Source: Hyphomicrobiales bacterium
GTDB taxonomy: Bacteria > Pseudomonadota > Alphaproteobacteria > Rhizobiales > Rhizobiaceae
Reading direction: 5' to 3'
NCBI GenBank assembly: GCA_900469345.1
Contig: UBWZ01000002.1
Location: forward strand, 673,579 to 737,578
DNA length: 64,000 nt
Part shown: piece after piece, positions 8,249 to 34,855 of the stretch
Layout: each line of letters begins with the position of its first letter
Numbering within the stretch: position 1 is the stretch's first letter
Program-made: the position numbers and the translations under genes
The notes under the pieces: model-generated
Told to the model about the DNA's origin: nothing
Database searches by the model: none
What the model saw: only the letters and a program-made list of their open reading frames with translations

Positions 8249-10248
8249 TACATGGAGCTCCCGAGCATCATCCAGGTGACCAGGGCTGCGATGCCGATCA
8301 TCATGGCGAAGGCATAGTGATAAAGGTAGCCGGACTGCAGTCTCACAACCCGGTTGGTAACGTCGACCACGCGGGCGGCAACGCCGTTGGGTCCGTAGGC
8401 ATCGATGACGCCGATGTCGCCCTTCTTCCACAGGAACCGGCCAAGCGCCTTGGCGGACCGTACGAAGAGGAAATCGTAGAGCTCGTCGAAGTACCACTTG
8501 TTGAGCAGGAACTTGTAGAGCCCCTGCTGCGAAGCGGCGAGCCGCTTCGGCGTCTCGGGCGACTTGATGTAGAAGTACCAGGCCGTGACGAAGCCGATGA
8601 CCATGGCGATGAAGGGGCTGAGCGCCACCAGCGCAGGCACGTGATGGAATTCTTCCAGGAGTTCGTTGTGTTGCGCGGTAAACAGCGCACCCTTCCAGAA
8701 TTCCGCATATTCCTCGCCGTAGAACATGCCTTCGAAGACGACACCGGCAAGCACCGCGCCAACCGCCAGGACGTAGAGCGGCACCAGCATGACGTTCGGC
8801 GATTCATGCACGTGATGCATCACCTCGTGGCTCGCCCGCGGCTTGCCAAAGAAGGTGAGGAACATCAAGCGCCACGAGTAGAAGCTTGTAAACATTGCAG
8901 CAATGACAAGCAGCGTGAAGGCGAAGCCCGAGGCCGGCGAATGCGAGGCATAGGCTGCCTCGATGATGACGTCCTTGGAGAAGAAACCGGCAAAACCGAT
9001 CGGCGTGAAGGGAATGCCGACGCCGGTGATTGCCAGCGTGCCGATCAGCATCATCGCGAAGGTAATCTTGATGTGCGGCCGCAGGCCCCCCATGTGGCGC
9101 ATGTCCTGTTCGCCATCGACGGCGTGGATGACCGAGCCGGCGCAAAGGAACAGCAGCGCCTTGAAGAAGGCGTGCGTGAACAGGTGGAAGATGGCCGAGC
9201 CATAGGCACCGACGCCGAGCGCCACGAACATGTAGCCGAGCTGCGAGCAGGTCGAATAGGCGATGACGCGCTTGATGTCGTTCTGCACGAGGCCGACCGT
9301 CGCCGCGAAGAAGGCGGTGATGGCACCGATGATCGTCACGACCAGCAGGGCGTTCGGCGAAAGCTCGAACACTGGCGACATGCGGGCGACGAGGAAGACG
9401 CCGGCAGTCACCATGGTTGCCGCGTGGATGAGCGCCGACACCGGCGTCGGGCCTTCCATCGCGTCCGGAAGCCAGGTGTGCAGCAGGAACTGGGCCGACT
9501 TGCCCATGGCGCCCATGAACAGCAGCAGGCAGACAACCGTGATCGCATTTGCCTTGTCGAGCGACATGCCGAAGATGTTGACCACCGCCTGCGTCGCGTC
9601 GGTTGCGCCTTCCGCCGGCAGGTAGGTCGATGCAGCAGCAAAGATGTTTTCGAAGTTGACCGAGCCGAACAGCACGAACAGGCCGGCAATGCCGAGGATG
9701 AAGCCGAAGTCGCCGACGCGGTTGACGATGAAGGCCTTCATCGCCGCAGCCGAGGCCGACGGCTTCTTGAACCAGAAGCCGATCAGCAGGTACGAGGCGA
9801 GACCGACGCCTTCCCAGCCGAAGAACATCTGCGCCAGGTTGTCGGACGTCACCAGCATCAGCATGGCGAAGGTGAACAGCGACAGGTAGGCGAAGAAGCG
9901 CGGCCGATGCGGATCGTGGTGCATGTAGCCGATCGAATAGATGTGCACGAGCGTCGAGACGGTGTTGACGACGACGAACATGATCGCTGTCAGCGTGTCG
10001 ATCCGAAATGCCCACTCGACATCGATGCCGCCGGACTGGATCCAGCGTAGCACCGGCACCTTGATCACCTCGCCGGCTTCGCCGTGCGCGAGCGCCACGT
10101 TGAAGAAGACGATCCAGGACAGCACCGCGACGATGATCATCAGCCCGCTGGTGACATATTCCGAAGCCTTGGAACCGATCGAACGGCCGAACAGGCCGGC
10201 GATCAGGAAGCCGATCAGGGGAAGGAAGACGATTGCCTTGTAGATCAT
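8248..10248 (-). CDS. nuoL: NADH-quinone oxidoreductase subunit L
   Basis: Distal antiporter-like subunit of complex I, carrying the long lateral helix that couples the proton channels. It has 666 residues and about 16 transmembrane helices, with [20 protein letters not shown] near 257 and the [20 protein letters not shown] segment near 320. The amphipathic C-terminal part is intact. The start is seven bases after the nuoK stop. Confidence 0.97.
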
Positions 10249-30859: not shown

Positions 30860-32173
30860 ATGGCTGATATTCGCAACACCTTCGTCGGCATCAAATCCCC
30901 CAACCCGTTCTGGCTCGCCTCCGCGCCGCCCACCGACAAGGCCTACAATGTCGAGCGCGCCTTCAAGGCCGGCTGGGGTGGTGTGGTCTGGAAGACGCTC
31001 GGCGAGGAAGGCCCGCCGGTGGTCAACGTCAATGGCCCGCGCTACGGCGCGATCTGGGGCGCCGACCGCCGTCTTTTGGGCTTGAACAACATCGAGCTGA
31101 TTACCGACCGCGACCTCTACACAAACCTCACCGAAATGAAGCAGGTGAAGAAGAACTGGCCCGACCGCGCGGTCGTCGCCTCGATCATGGTCCCTTGCGA
31201 GGAGGCCGCCTGGAAAGCCATCCTGCCTCTGGTCGAGGAAACCGAAGTGGACGGCATCGAGCTCAACTTCGGCTGTCCGCACGGCATGTCTGAGCGTGGC
31301 ATGGGCTCGGCCGTCGGCCAGGTGCCGGAATACATCGAGATGGTGGTGCGCTGGTGCAAGCAATATACCCGCATGCCGGTCATCACCAAGCTGACGCCCA
31401 ATATCAGCGACATCCGCCACCCGGCCCGCGCCGCCAAGCGCGGCGGCACCGACGCGGTCTCGCTGATCAACACCATCTCGTCGATCGTTTCCGTCGATCT
31501 CGACAGCTTCTCCCCCAACCCCTCGATCGGCGGCAAGGGCAGCCACGGCGGCTATTGCGGACCGGCGGTCAAGCCGATCGCCCTCAACATGGTGGCCGAG
31601 ATCGCCCGCGATCCGGAAACCTACGGTCTGCCGATCTCCGGCATCGGCGGCGTCACCACCTGGCGTGATGCGGCCGAATTCCTGGCGCTCGGGGCCGGCA
31701 ATGTGCAGGTCTGCACCGCCGCCATGACCTACGGCTTCAAGATCGTCGAGGAGATGATCACCGGCCTCTGCGACTGGATGGACGCCAAGGGTCACCAGAG
31801 CCTCGACGACATCACCGGCCGTGCGGTGCAGAATGTCACCGACTGGCAGTACCTCAACCTCAACTACATCGCCAAGGCGAAGATCGACCAGGATCTGTGC
31901 ATCAAGTGCGGCCGCTGCCACATCGCCTGCGAGGACACCTCGCACCAGGCGATCACTAACCAGGTCAACGGCATCAGGCACTTCGAGGTGATGGAAGACG
32001 AGTGCGTCGGCTGCAACCTGTGCGTCAACGTCTGTCCGGTCGAAAACTGCATCACGTTGGATGCCCTGCCCGCAGGTGCACTCGATGAGCGCACTGGCAA
32101 GGTCGTCGACCCGACCTACGCCAACTGGACGCAACATCCGAACAATCCGATGACGCGCCAGGCCGCGGAATAG
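30860..32173 (+). CDS. preA: NAD-dependent dihydropyrimidine dehydrogenase, FMN subunit PreA
   Basis: Catalytic subunit with a dihydroorotate-dehydrogenase-like FMN barrel (residues 1-330; NFGCPHGMSERGMGSAVGQ near 138 contains the catalytic Cys region) and a C-terminal ferredoxin domain with two [4Fe-4S] motifs, CIKCGRCHIACED near 346 and CVGCNLCVNVCPVENC near 381-396. The 437 residues match the family. A GGGGGAAGAGAC ribosome binding site precedes the ATG. The gene ends in an inverted repeat shared with the convergent receiver-like gene. Confidence 0.95.
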   Translation: MADIRNTFVGIKSPNPFWLASAPPTDKAYNVERAFKAGWGGVVWKTLGEEGPPVVNVNGPRYGAIWGADRRLLGLNNIELITDRDLYTNLTEMKQVKKNWPDRAVVASIMVPCEEAAWKAILPLVEETEVDGIELNFGCPHGMSERGMGSAVGQVPEYIEMVVRWCKQYTRMPVITKLTPNISDIRHPARAAKRGGTDAVSLINTISSIVSVDLDSFSPNPSIGGKGSHGGYCGPAVKPIALNMVAEIARDPETYGLPISGIGGVTTWRDAAEFLALGAGNVQVCTAAMTYGFKIVEEMITGLCDWMDAKGHQSLDDITGRAVQNVTDWQYLNLNYIAKAKIDQDLCIKCGRCHIACEDTSHQAITNQVNGIRHFEVMEDECVGCNLCVNVCPVENCITLDALPAGALDERTGKVVDPTYANWTQHPNNPMTRQAAE

Positions 32174-32181
32174 CAAACGCG

Positions 32182-32215
32182 GAGCGCCAGGCCCGACGGG
32201 TCAGACCTGGCGCTC
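32182..32215. terminator. Inverted repeat between convergent preA and the receiver-like gene
   Basis: GAGCGCCAGG (32182-32191) and CCTGGCGCTC (32206-32215) form a perfect 10-bp stem with a 14-base loop. There is no T-run on either side. The right arm encodes the last residues of the receiver-like protein. It could act as a shared transcriptional end or mRNA 3' stabiliser. Confidence 0.5.
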
Positions 32216-33034
32216 GCGCACGTCGAAAACCAGCTGCAGCAATTCGTCCGGGCGGTTGGTGATCCCGAACAGCCCGGCGGGACGGTCGCGGCCCTGCTGG
32301 TCCGTGGCGCAGTAGATGACGATCGGAATGTCGCGGTCGACCGCCCGCACCGCCGCAAGCAGTCCAAGACCCTGGTCCGGATCGCCGGGGCGTGCCATGT
32401 CGGCAATGAGGAGCCTGTAGTCGTCTCTGGCCGACAGACTGGCGGCCGCCTCGGCACTCGTCCTGGCCCACTCGATGCGCGCACCAAGCCGCTTCAGGAA
32501 CGCTTCCTCGTTGATGTTGTTGGACGGAACATCGTCGACCCAGAGGATCCTCATCCGCTTCAGAAGTCCGCCGCTGCGATCAACCCGAGCGATCAGTGCC
32601 GCCCGCTGGCCATGGCTGATCGGCATGCCGTGGGCTGCCGCGGCATCCTCCAGTCTGTCTTCTAGAAATTCGAGTTCGACCCCGAACCCCTTGAAGACCT
32701 TCAGGCGGCCAAGAAGAACCACGACCTGCGGAAAGAAAGCCTTGAGCGCCCAGCCGGCGAAAACGACCCAGATCAGCGTCGGCAGCGCGCCGATCAGCAC
32801 CGCGCCACCGCCATCCCAGAACCCGGCGGCCTTATCGTCCGCGGGCGGCTCCCTGGTCGGCGCTGCAGCTGCAACTGCCGCAGTTGCTGGTGCCGGCAGA
32901 GGGACCGGTTGGGTGGCTGGCGGGGCGGCCGCCGACCGGGCAGTGGTTCCGGTCTGGCCCCACCCCGGACTGCCGGTGGCGACAGGCCCGGCGAGCGCGA
33001 TGAGGACGAAAGCGATGATGCGGTTTCTGGTCAT
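32201..33034 (-). CDS. Membrane-tethered protein with a degenerate response-regulator receiver domain
   Basis: A 277-residue protein: signal-like N-terminus (MTRNRIIAFVLIALAGP), a Pro/Ala-rich linker to about residue 70, one transmembrane helix near 80-105 (VLIGALPTLIWVVFAGWALK), a short amphipathic region with VFKGFGVELEFLEDRLEDA, and a receiver-like domain from about 165. The receiver part keeps the acidic pair (ILWVDD) and a candidate phosphoacceptor (LLIADMARPGD), but the usual Lys-Pro near the end reads TNRPDELL, with Arg-Pro. There is no DNA-binding output domain. The ATG at 33034 overlaps the upstream stop by four bases (ATGA). Third gene of a coupled cassette; role unknown. Confidence 0.7.
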   Translation of the reverse strand: MTRNRIIAFVLIALAGPVATGSPGWGQTGTTARSAAAPPATQPVPLPAPATAAVAAAAPTREPPADDKAAGFWDGGGAVLIGALPTLIWVVFAGWALKAFFPQVVVLLGRLKVFKGFGVELEFLEDRLEDAAAAHGMPISHGQRAALIARVDRSGGLLKRMRILWVDDVPSNNINEEAFLKRLGARIEWARTSAEAAASLSARDDYRLLIADMARPGDPDQGLGLLAAVRAVDRDIPIVIYCATDQQGRDRPAGLFGITNRPDELLQLVFDVRERQV

Positions 33035-33936
33035 GCCGCGCGGCCCTCTTTCGGAGCCCATCCTTTTGCCAGACCCCGCATGAAGGCCACCGCCCCCATC
33101 TCGTCAAGCGTCTCCGGCAGGTCGAGGCGCAACCTGGCCCGCGCGAGGGCAATATGGCTTGCCAGCAGCCGCCAGTCGATCAGCTCGGCCCGAAGATAAG
33201 GGACGCGCCGCTCAAGGCCGGCATCGGCTTGCGCGCGACCCCGCCAGTCCTGCGCGATCATGGCGATCCGGACGGCATAGTTGCGCTCCATCGCGAGGAT
33301 GGCGCTGACGGCAGCCGCGTCGTCGTGCCTAAACGGCACGGGCGAAAAGGCATATTCGAAGCGTTGCTGATCGATGCGTTCGATGATGGCAGCTTCCAGC
33401 GCCGCCGAGGCCAGCGAGAAATACGGCGTCTCGCCGGCAAAGCTGTAACCCGTCACAGGAGTGCCGCCTGCGGCCAGAAGCCTCGCCAGCCGCCGCATCG
33501 GCAGCGCCTCGAATTGACGCTTCAGGGGCCAAGGGCTCGCCGTCCCATCTGCAGGATCGCGATTTTGCCCTTCAGCGATCGCCGACAGCAGCGATACGCG
33601 CGCGATTTCGAGCGGATCCGCGTCGGCTGTCAGCGGCGGAACGATCTGCATGGCGCTCGCCAGCGTGTCGATGCCGTCCCGCGTTTCACCGAGAGAGAAC
33701 AGCCATTGCGCCGCCTCGACAAGTGCCTCGCTTCTCACGGCAAGATCAGCGTCTTTACTCGGACGCAGTGCGACTGCCTCTTCCCCGTCCCGGCGCCTGC
33801 GGAAGATCGCGCTGATGTCGCTGGCTCTCTCGGCACAGGTGCGCAGGAAGGAAATGCGGCTGCGGATCAGCGCCGTGACCTCGTCACGCCCGACGCCATC
33901 AGGCGCGATCGAGTCCAGTGCGGCGAGGTAAGGCAT
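33031..33936 (-). CDS. All-helical hypothetical protein, middle gene of the three-gene cassette
   Basis: A 301-residue soluble protein, predicted almost entirely helical and rich in Ala, Arg and Leu, with TPR-like spacing in places (ALVEAAQWLFSLGETRDGID near 96-115). No signal peptide, membrane segment or catalytic motif is visible, and I recognise no family. The ATG at 33936 shares one base with the stop of the preceding gene (TGATG), and its own stop overlaps the next start (ATGA), so the three proteins are likely made in fixed proportion. Confidence 0.65.
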   Translation of the reverse strand: MPYLAALDSIAPDGVGRDEVTALIRSRISFLRTCAERASDISAIFRRRRDGEEAVALRPSKDADLAVRSEALVEAAQWLFSLGETRDGIDTLASAMQIVPPLTADADPLEIARVSLLSAIAEGQNRDPADGTASPWPLKRQFEALPMRRLARLLAAGGTPVTGYSFAGETPYFSLASAALEAAIIERIDQQRFEYAFSPVPFRHDDAAAVSAILAMERNYAVRIAMIAQDWRGRAQADAGLERRVPYLRAELIDWRLLASHIALARARLRLDLPETLDEMGAVAFMRGLAKGWAPKEGRAA

Positions 33937-34547
33937 CAGATCACCTCCACCACATTGCTGATCGCATCCGGACCGACGAACTGCGCATTGTCTTTGTAAC
34001 CGTCTGTGCCAAAACGCGTGTCCAGCGTCAGATCGACCCTGATTTTCGCGACCCATTCGATCTGCCGCGCAGGCACGATCAACGGCACGGCGATTTCGCC
34101 CTCCTGGTGGAAGATCCAGAACGGCCGGAAGATATTGAGGTCCCGAACCTCGTCGGAGATCGCACACAGGCCGGCATTGCGCTTCGGCGAGACGATCGCC
34201 CAGCAGCGGAACACATAGCCCGGCGTCCGCCCGCCGCGGGTGGCGAAATCCACCGCGGTCTTCCAGGCCGGATGGATAGTGACCCCGCCCCCCGGCTTTG
34301 GCGTGACGATGCCGGCAGACAGGGAGATGTAGGGCGTGTCCGGCACCAGCCCGTAATGGTTGACGTGATCGTCGAGGGCCTTTGCGCCGAGCGCTGCTTG
34401 GCCGCCGGCAAGCCCGGCATCCAGGGGGCCGCCGCTATGCTTCCAGACCCACTTGCTCGGCAGACCGTCCTGGAAGACCTGGACGGCGCTCGTGTCGTCG
34501 AAGGTGGAACTCTGCGCAATTCCCTTGAGGCACCAGTGAACGATCAT
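33936..34547 (-). CDS. Protein with ADP-ribosyltransferase-like pattern, first gene of the three-gene cassette
   Basis: A 203-residue protein from the ATG at 34547 (GGTGAG upstream); the frame is open to 34613. Four features in order resemble the fold of pertussis-type ADP-ribosyltransferases, as I remember the family: VFQDGL near residue 25, TPYISLSAG (STS-like strand) near 72, PGYVFRCWAIV near 109, and HQEGEIAVPLIVPARQIEWV (E-x-E followed by a VPARQI-type strand) near 148-167. The Arg expected in the first strand appears as Thr (STFDDT), so activity is doubtful or the match is only structural. No signal peptide. Function not known. Confidence 0.6.
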   Translation of the reverse strand: MIVHWCLKGIAQSSTFDDTSAVQVFQDGLPSKWVWKHSGGPLDAGLAGGQAALGAKALDDHVNHYGLVPDTPYISLSAGIVTPKPGGGVTIHPAWKTAVDFATRGGRTPGYVFRCWAIVSPKRNAGLCAISDEVRDLNIFRPFWIFHQEGEIAVPLIVPARQIEWVAKIRVDLTLDTRFGTDGYKDNAQFVGPDAISNVVEVI

Positions 34548-34855
34548 CGAACTCACCGCAATCGAGAGAACGTGGTGGCGAAAGGTATGACTGGAGATGA
34601 TGGAGCTTATCACGCCCGTATCGCAACGTCATCAGACCGGGAAACCCTGACCGGTACAGTCCGCAGCAACCGAACGCCGGAGGCACCATTTGGAACATCC
34701 GAACACCGCCAGTCTATCCAAAGTTCTACCACACGGTTTTAACCCGGAATTAGTCGAAAGCTGACAACATCTTACGAGGATCTCTTGAGGCGACTGTACA
34801 GCACTCTGCTCGGGAGATGGGTTTTGTTTTGCTCAAGCGCTCATTGGTGTTGGCT
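34548..34855. other. Divergent region between the three-gene cassette and the chemoreceptor gene
   Basis: About 308 bases. It should hold promoters for both directions, but I cannot pick out a convincing -35/-10 pair for either. An alternative chemoreceptor start at 34817 lies inside it. No other gene seen. Confidence 0.4.

What the first reader, a model, noticed from the sequence alone, without database searches (positions are those of the whole stretch)
32201..34547. Translationally coupled three-gene cassette of unknown function
Three minus-strand genes overlap stop-to-start (TGATG and ATGA), so their products are likely made in fixed proportion: a 203-residue protein with an ADP-ribosyltransferase-like pattern, a 301-residue all-helical protein with no recognised family, and a 277-residue single-span membrane protein with a receiver-like domain. 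None fits the pyrimidine or chemotaxis neighbours, and the block sits in an accessory-looking island between preA and a chemoreceptor gene. A modifier/partner/membrane-sensor module would be compatible with a stress, defence or signalling system. The function is inference only.
Basis: partly seen in the sequence, partly recalled or inferred. Interest (0 to 1): 0.75.

Follow-up and report, generated by a model that had tools for sequence, protein, structure and literature searches.

The report
Mobile ADP-ribosyltransferase, partner and membrane-receiver cassette
Three overlapping genes, inserted as one small unit in this bacterium and found together in distant bacteria, look like an undescribed self-contained stress or virus-defence module whose active part is an enzyme that tags molecules with ADP-ribose.

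Summary
Three minus-strand genes overlap by 1 and 4 bases. They form one ~2.57 kb insertion after preA: in two same-genus genomes only 313 and 142 bp lie between the same flanks. I have 10 copies, from Alphaproteobacteria and Actinobacteria. All 10 have gene 1 followed by a helical gene 2; 9 also have the membrane-anchored receiver; the tenth has another membrane protein overlapping gene 1. Of three copies found without using the receiver, two are complete.

Gene 1 has an ADP-ribosyltransferase (ART) fold: the 33 best Foldseek rows all come from ART entries (best 5.5e-5), and the ARTT-loop signature holds in 10 of 10 copies. Caveats: model pLDDT is 50; the first-strand Arg is Lys in 7 of 10, window included. 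Gene 2 diverges so fast that its homology between groups is only weakly supported. Gene 3's receiver keeps the acceptor Asp but not the usual Thr/Ser and Lys.

Two of nine other copies lie beside known defence genes; enrichment is suggestive only. Best reading: a membrane-tethered ART conflict module, probably anti-phage. Function is untested.

The parts
32173..34737 (.). Inserted segment (whole cassette with ~190 bp upstream of gene 1)
   Evidence: blastn of the window against 12 same-genus regions: homology stops at 32157 (L144) or 32172 (L154) and resumes at 34749 or 34738; 313 and 142 bp lie between these flanks in L144 and L154. tblastn at E<=1: no gene 1 match in any of the 12, gene 2 only matches with E>=0.15
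33936..34547 (-). Gene 1: 203-aa ADP-ribosyltransferase-fold protein (effector)
   Evidence: Foldseek hits to ARTs; homologues in 9 other copies
34524..34526 (-). Lys8, at the place of the first-strand Arg of R-S-E ARTs (Lys in 7, Arg in 3 of 10 copies)
   Evidence: alignment; assigned to the Arg position by its place in the conserved first strand, not by a structure superposition
34323..34325 (-). Ser75 of the S-x-[ST] motif (10 of 10 copies)
34095..34118 (-). Residues 144-151, ARTT-loop word X-X-aromatic-X-X-[E/Q]-X-E with Glu149 and Glu151 (word met in 10 of 10 copies)
   Evidence: definition of the word from PMC7827354 section 8
33031..33936 (-). Gene 2: 301-aa helical partner, no known family, fast-diverging
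32201..33034 (-). Gene 3: 277-aa membrane protein with C-terminal atypical receiver domain
32741..32800 (-). Transmembrane span of gene 3 (about residues 79-98)
   Evidence: best hydropathy window starts at residue 79, mean 2.11; equivalent spans in the other copies
32210..32557 (-). Receiver domain (about residues 160-275): Asp167-Asp168, acceptor Asp212, Arg215, no canonical Lys
33936..33938 (-). Gene 1 stop codon, its last base shared with the gene 2 start (TGATG)
33031..33034 (-). ATGA overlap of gene 2 stop and gene 3 start
32133..32144 (+). Left copy of a 12-bp direct repeat, inside the 3' end of preA
   Evidence: 127 of 20000 random pairs of 160-bp stretches of this window share a 12-mer
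34694..34705 (+). Right copy of the 12-bp direct repeat

Best explanation
The three genes are one horizontally moving conflict module, most likely an anti-phage (abortive or growth-arrest) system. Shown or well supported here: gene 1 has an ADP-ribosyltransferase fold with the substrate-loop signature of the R-S-E class; a helical gene 2 always follows it; gene 3 (or, in one copy, another membrane protein) gives the module a membrane component; the unit inserts as a block. Inferred: gene 2 binds gene 1 and holds it silent (antitoxin/adaptor role); the atypical receiver of gene 3, which keeps the acceptor Asp but lacks the usual switch residues, acts as an unconventional, perhaps kinase-independent, switch that docks the complex at the inner membrane and changes state on membrane disturbance or a bound nucleotide during infection; the freed ART then ADP-ribosylates a host component (arginine, to judge by the Glu at loop position 6), stopping growth. 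The target, the trigger and the phage specificity are unknown.
For: Foldseek of the gene 1 model: the 33 best rows all come from ART entries by their titles (many are repeated chains of the same proteins); only the first four, Xenorhabdus Rhs ARTs, have E<=0.001, the best 5.5e-5. Ser75 and the ARTT word in 10 of 10 copies; among 1338 ORFs of 150-260 aa in the fetched loci 6 hold the motif pair at that spacing, 5 of them family members. Gene order kept: gene 1 then gene 2 in 10 of 10, receiver next in 9 of 10, with gaps from -14 to +24 bases in the 7 copies measured. Search with gene 1 alone in the family of the Lentzea genome: 4 of 287 genomes, one being Lentzea; of the 3 new copies 2 are complete and 1 has genes 1-2 with a different membrane protein overlapping by ATGA. 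Insertion with near-empty sites in two relatives. Patchy spread: only the window's own genome among 385 genomes of its class and among 60 relatives. Defence neighbours: SIR2 + HerA in L044, methyl-directed restriction enzyme and TmtA within 5 kb in L167. Mobile genes: L104 recombinase and relaxase, L044 rve transposase (L050 only a sub-threshold rve_3 match), L166 phage integrase. Receivers without kinases in conflict systems have been predicted to be nucleotide-responsive switches (PMC8195603, passage seen).
Against: No activity is known. The gene 1 model has mean pLDDT 50 and no sequence library recognises the family. The first-strand residue is Lys in 7 of 10 copies, so catalysis is uncertain. 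Gene 2 of the three copy groups may not even be one family. In seven of the nine other copies I identified no defence gene pair (some hits were not traced to a locus); the window's own neighbours were not scanned for defence genes, and its cassette stands between preA and a chemoreceptor gene. The control comparison is small. In 74 of 80 receiver loci no gene 1 was found (4 of these have under 1 kb of upstream DNA), so the receiver family mostly has other roles.
Confidence: 0.5

Rival explanations
1. Regulatory ADP-ribosylation module: the membrane receiver takes phosphate from some histidine kinase and steers the ART, through gene 2, to modify a host enzyme reversibly, as in metabolic control.
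For: The acceptor Asp is kept in 90 of 92 receivers; no kinase is in the cassette, so an outside kinase is possible.
Against: No recognisable ADP-ribosyl-hydrolase in the cassette (gene 2 has no significant Pfam match, and no GD/DDT cluster shared by the 10 copies); Thr or Ser in 38 of 92 and the canonical Lys not conserved; very patchy distribution and some mobile or defence surroundings argue against a physiological role.
Confidence: 0.2
2. Plain toxin-antitoxin or addiction unit: gene 1 toxin, gene 2 antitoxin, gene 3 an accessory membrane anchor; it maintains itself rather than defending the host.
For: Overlapping genes, fast-diverging gene 2, mobile neighbours of some copies.
Against: Single chromosomal insertion in the window; three genes with a membrane component are unusual for addiction units (recalled); no match in 72,556 plasmid records with three gene 1 queries or with the window's gene 2.
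Confidence: 0.17
3. Gene 1 is a degenerate ART that binds NAD+ or a macromolecule without catalysis, and the cassette works as a binding sensor.
For: Lys in place of the first-strand Arg in 7 of 10 copies; the review PMC7827354 says that Arg is important for NAD binding (passage).
Against: Ser75, the loop aromatic and Glu151 are kept in 10 of 10 and loop position 6 is Glu in 9 and Gln in 1, both natural in the class; selection is purifying.
Confidence: 0.1
4. Interbacterial effector with immunity proteins.
For: The closest solved structures are Rhs-type ARTs; the Salmonella one, TreTu, arrests translation by ADP-ribosylating EF-Tu (PMC10469887, passages).
Against: Gene 1 is a stand-alone 203-aa protein without a recognised delivery domain; no signal-like start in its sequence. 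Secretion genes elsewhere in the genome were not searched.
Confidence: 0.03

Closest known systems
CmdTAC (ART toxin, antitoxin, SecB-like chaperone) anti-phage system
   Same: Three-gene operon with an ART-like effector and two control proteins (PMC9519451, two passages; PMC11618068, seen only in the search listing).
   Different: Third gene here is a membrane-anchored receiver, not a SecB-like chaperone; no PADLOC model matches the three proteins significantly.
Rhs-type ARTs TreTu and TreX
   Same: Nearest solved fold of gene 1 (Foldseek 5.5e-5 and 2.1e-4).
   Different: No Rhs or delivery part; sequence similarity is not significant (TreX E 1.5).
R-S-E class ADP-ribosyltransferases in general
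   Same: Fold, Ser motif and ARTT loop.
   Different: Lys instead of Arg on the first strand in 7 of 10 copies; no Pfam family matches.
Receiver domains of bacterial conflict systems (VMAP/TERNS type)
   Same: Receiver without a kinase; a Rhizobium phaseoli receiver 40% identical to gene 3's lies in a protein annotated SAV_2336-related, after MoxR and trypsin-like genes (PMC8195603 passage).
   Different: Here the receiver is membrane-anchored and paired with an ART.
DarT-DarG and DarT-NADAR toxin-antitoxin pairs
   Same: ART toxin with a dedicated partner gene (NADAR: start of an abstract in the listing; DarG: recalled).
   Different: Partner here has no macrodomain or NADAR match in Pfam; a third membrane gene is present.

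Membership tests
R-S-E class ADP-ribosyltransferase (gene 1) | ART fold | tested here: met
   Foldseek: the 33 best rows are all ART entries by title, 4 of them with E<=0.001; the model's pLDDT is only 50
R-S-E class ADP-ribosyltransferase (gene 1) | Arg on the first strand | tested here: not met
   Lys8 in the window and in 7 of 10 copies; Arg in 3 of 10
R-S-E class ADP-ribosyltransferase (gene 1) | Ser on the second conserved strand | tested here: met
   Ser75 in 10 of 10, in a predicted strand 73-76
R-S-E class ADP-ribosyltransferase (gene 1) | ARTT loop X-X-aromatic-X-X-E/Q-X-E | tested here: met
   10 of 10 copies
R-S-E class ADP-ribosyltransferase (gene 1) | NAD+-dependent ADP-ribose transfer | not testable with these tools
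   needs a biochemical assay
CmdTAC-type (TAC) system | SecB-like chaperone as third gene | tested here: not met
   third gene is a membrane protein with a receiver; no PADLOC match
Canonical response regulator (gene 3) | Acidic pair and acceptor Asp | tested here: met
   Asp167, Asp168, Asp212; Asp212 in 90 of 92 relatives, near-identical rows not removed; the acidic pair was part of the search pattern
Canonical response regulator (gene 3) | Conserved Thr/Ser and Lys switch residues | tested here: not met
   Cys at 242 in the window (Thr or Ser in 38 of 92); Lys in at most 10 of 92 at any of positions 260-262
Canonical response regulator (gene 3) | Cognate histidine kinase gene beside it | tested here: not met
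   window only: the adjoining genes are gene 2, preA and a chemoreceptor gene; not examined systematically in the other copies
Known anti-phage defence system | Match to a described system's proteins | tested here: not met
   PADLOC-DB 2.0.0: only one weak hit, gene 2 E 0.024
Known anti-phage defence system | Recurrent placement in defence islands | tested here: inconclusive
   2 of 9 other copies beside defence genes, a Fic protein near a third; at least 5 of 96 flanking proteins against 2 of 115 control proteins match PADLOC at E<=1e-10
Known anti-phage defence system | Protection from phage | not testable with these tools
   needs plaque assays

The most novel reading that the evidence does not exclude
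A previously undescribed membrane-gated anti-phage system in which an unconventional, kinase-independent receiver domain (or another interchangeable membrane protein) controls an ADP-ribosyltransferase through a fast-evolving helical adaptor, with an ART active site that mostly has Lys where the class has Arg.
Probability: 0.35. Interest if true: 0.78.

Novelty: new variant of a known kind. Interest (0 to 1): 0.62.

Why it matters
It would add another architecture to ART-based bacterial immunity, with a membrane-placed switch instead of a chaperone or hydrolase antitoxin, and give a testable role to a widespread but unexplained family of mostly membrane-anchored receiver proteins (258 relatives confirmed in one scan of one genome collection). 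The module is only three genes, so expression, toxicity, neutralisation and phage tests are short experiments.

Tried and rejected
Single-sequence searches led nowhere: gene 1 found no relative in genome contigs (10 pattern hits, none confirmed), viral contigs (no hit), plasmids or phages; the gene 1 alignment found none in viral contigs either (67 pattern hits, none confirmed). Gene 2 found none in viral contigs or plasmids and, in 394 genomes of the family, besides the window one weak match that I take for chance (31% over 84 residues with 2 stops). The second phylum match of gene 1 (2 of 398 genomes, the other being the window) is a 49-residue match with a stop inside, at a place covered by a long ORF of another kind. 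What worked was the receiver alignment A1.

Considered and rejected: an ordinary two-component response regulator (switch residues missing); gene 2 as an ADP-ribosyl-hydrolase of the all-helical DraG/ARH type (fold recalled; no significant Pfam match; no shared GD or DDT clusters); gene 2 as a TPR protein (best Foldseek E 0.29, not significant); an integrase inside the insertion (none among the ORFs). A juxtamembrane motif seen by eye was dropped (8 of 80). Promoter scan: 0 sites; terminator scan: 1 site against 1.5 expected. Tree congruence was not run. VIA-align was not available.

Homology of gene 2 between the three groups of copies is not proven. Against: hhalign between groups gives probabilities of at most 1.2%, within the range of 59 control proteins. 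For: window and L043 are each other's best non-self hit among 4461 ORFs but at E 0.06 only (the 6e-5 refers to a set of 7 sequences, and tblastn against 94 loci gave 0.022); a profile of window, L043 and the Serinicoccus-type copies finds L112 at 2.7e-4 among 4461 ORFs, but not L104; a profile of five Lentzea-type members ranks the window protein first after its own members at E 0.085; a profile of the first seven finds L165, L166 and L167 at 2e-46, 1e-20 and 3e-9 in a database of those three loci. Several other train/test splits found nothing.

Literature: searches listed no paper that I recognised as describing an ART-helical-membrane-receiver cassette in the held library of open papers; I judged by titles, abstract starts and the passages. 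Subscription papers and preprints are mostly not held.
Full report
1. The observation. Three minus-strand ORFs at 33936-34547 (203 aa), 33031-33936 (301 aa) and 32201-33034 (277 aa) are as described, with TGATG and ATGA junctions. Pfam, NCBIfam, PADLOC and PHROGs recognise only the receiver of gene 3 (Pfam Response_reg E 2.7e-5, below its cut-off; PHROG 5982, of unknown function, E 2.6e-6); genes 1 and 2 have nothing significant.

2. An insertion. Of 57 genomes of the genus 51 have a match to preA, one of them only a 40-base piece. I fetched 12 of these regions. In L144 and L154 only 313 and 142 bp lie between the flanks that in the window are 2591 and 2565 bp apart. In the other ten the stretch after preA holds 1.7 kb or more of other DNA, so this junction varies. 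tblastn found no gene 1 in any of the 12. A 12-bp direct repeat, AACATCCGAACA, lies at 32133 in the end of preA and at 34694; 127 of 20000 random pairs of 160-bp stretches of this window share a 12-mer, so it hints at the insertion event, no more. The cassette's G+C (0.64-0.69) is like its surroundings; the stretch upstream of gene 1 drops to about 0.57. The host is probably a Rhizobiaceae member: the best plasmid-collection match of the surrounding genes is Shinella at 83%; this is an inference.

3. Relatives. The route was the receiver: an alignment of four receivers (window, E. coli L035, R. phaseoli L034, L005) was used to scan genome contigs; 258 places encode a relative and the best 80 were kept. 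In 6 of those 80 loci gene 1 and gene 2 lie directly upstream: L043 Sandaracinobacteroides hominis, L044 and L045 (two copies in one Serinicoccus bin), L050 Actinotalea subterranea, L104 Lentzea, L112 Amycolatopsis kentuckyensis. In the other 74 no gene 1 was found; 4 of them (L062, L064, L084, L092) have less than 1 kb upstream. Because the six were found through gene 3, I also searched with the gene 1 alignment: 385 genomes of the window's class and 60 relatives gave only the window itself; the family of the Lentzea genome gave 4 of 287, one being Lentzea. Of the three new copies L165 and L166 are complete; L167 has genes 1 and 2 but no receiver near by, and instead, directly before gene 1, a membrane protein (186 aa if it starts at 8401; strong hydrophobic stretch at residue 6) whose stop overlaps the gene 1 start by ATGA. 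In the five genomes of the first six other copies gene 1 occurs at six places, all of them the known cassettes. So, by position, genes 1-2 are together in 10 of 10 and gene 3 is there in 9 of 10. Distances between the genes range from -14 to +24 bases in the 7 copies measured. Between the two Serinicoccus copies dN/dS is 0.16-0.18 for all three genes with similar dS.

4. Gene 1. An AlphaFold2 model from 7 sequences has mean pLDDT 50 and pTM 0.58, so it must be read with care. Foldseek against the PDB nevertheless returned in its first 33 rows only entries of ARTs: Xenorhabdus Rhs ARTs TreTu/TreX (E 5.5e-5 to 3.4e-4, the only four at or below 0.001), then PltA, cholera toxin, pertussis S1, pierisin, mosquitocidal toxin and others at E 0.02-0.9; many rows are repeated chains, and from row 34 unrelated folds appear. 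The R-S-E class has Arg on strand 1, Ser on strand 2 and a loop X-X-aromatic-X-X-E/Q-X-E ending in the essential Glu (PMC7827354, passages and section 8). In the 10 copies: Ser75 10 of 10; loop aromatic 10 of 10 (Phe 6, Tyr 2, Trp 2); loop position 6 Glu in 9 and Gln in 1; Glu151 10 of 10; first-strand residue Lys in 7 (window included) and Arg in 3. Of 1338 ORFs of 150-260 aa in the fetched loci 6 hold the Ser and loop words at the right spacing; 5 are family members. Glu at loop position 6 points to arginine as target by the rule in that section, an inference.

5. Gene 2. The model is all helix with pLDDT 51 and no significant structural match. It diverges faster than its neighbours: identity to the window protein is 17-29%, against 26-50% for gene 1 and 24-48% for gene 3. 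Homology across the three groups of copies is not proven; the evidence on both sides is given under Tried and rejected. Position, helical character and a C-terminal pattern around W, A-P and D agree in most copies.

6. Gene 3. Signal-like and Pro/Ala-rich N-terminus in the window, a strong span near residue 79, then a receiver. Among 92 receivers aligned (near-identical rows not removed) Asp212 is kept in 90, Arg215 in 91, Asn173 in 90, Tyr241 in 86; the Thr/Ser position has Thr or Ser in 38, and the Lys position is not conserved. The LWVDDxP part was in the search pattern, so its constancy means little. Of the 80 genome loci 67 have a hydrophobic span before the receiver. The R. phaseoli receiver lies in a protein annotated SAV_2336-related behind MoxR and trypsin-like genes, and receivers without kinases in such conflict systems have been predicted to be nucleotide-responsive switches (PMC8195603, passage).

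7. Surroundings. L044: SIR2 and HerA genes (PADLOC 2e-59 and 3e-164) follow the cassette, with one small gene between. L167: a methyl-directed restriction enzyme (2e-28) lies about 1 kb before and TmtA (3.5e-181) about 5 kb behind it. L050 has a Fic protein 3.6 kb before gene 1. L104 has a serine recombinase and a relaxase, L044 an rve-type transposase, L050 a sub-threshold rve_3 match, L166 a phage integrase. L165 showed nothing clear among the two neighbours tested (one match at 8e-4). Control: 96 flanking proteins of the nine non-window copies match 70 PADLOC models at E<=1e-10, while 115 proteins of nine regions at round coordinates of my choice in five of the genomes match 3 models. But many models hit the same protein and only 25 of the 70 are listed. 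I can name five hit proteins in the flanks (SIR2, HerA, TmtA, mREase_II and, by its Pfam match, the Fic protein as SoFic), with RmrA and PDC-S28 hits not traced; the control has two (one carrying mad3 and mad8, one mad2). This is suggestive only. The window's own neighbours were not scanned.

8. Verdict. The anatomy (mobile three-gene unit with an ART-fold effector, helical companion and membrane component) is well supported. It resembles CmdTAC in logic (ART plus two control genes; in CmdTAC the ART alone was not toxic but the ART with its antitoxin lacking the chaperone was; PMC9519451 passages) but is not a member: no SecB-like chaperone and no PADLOC match.

Noticed in passing
L035:7593-8363 (E. 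coli, beside guaBA): A 256-aa protein with two hydrophobic spans and the same kind of receiver, next to an AAA ATPase and an integrase fragment; 20 of 5426 complete E. coli genomes have a place covering at least 80% of this 5-kb region.
   Followed up: partly
L048:7728-14018 (Desulfobacula MAG): A membrane receiver protein of the same family directly followed by a ThsA-like SIR2 protein (PADLOC 4e-15) and a 1582-aa protein without PADLOC match that looks like a P-loop NTPase: possibly another receiver-linked defence locus.
   Followed up: partly
L034:6279-10808 (R. phaseoli plasmid): The same kind of receiver inside a 1509-aa SAV_2336-related protein behind MoxR and trypsin-like genes.
   Followed up: partly
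L043:6076-6100: The S. hominis gene 1 frame has an early in-frame TGA, so this copy either starts downstream or is broken.
   Followed up: partly
window 32173-34737 and homologous sites L144-L155: The stretch downstream of preA is variable across the genus: 313 and 142 bp in two relatives, two other genes before the chemoreceptor gene in L155, several kb of other genes in the rest of the 12 regions.
   Followed up: partly
L167:8401-8961: A membrane protein without Pfam or PADLOC match stands in place of the membrane receiver beside genes 1 and 2.
   Followed up: partly
window 32210-32557 (receiver): The receiver matches the C-terminal end of PHROG 5982, a 1030-position viral family of unknown function (E 2.6e-6), and nine viral contigs carry relatives of it, so phages or prophages also carry this receiver type.
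   Followed up: partly
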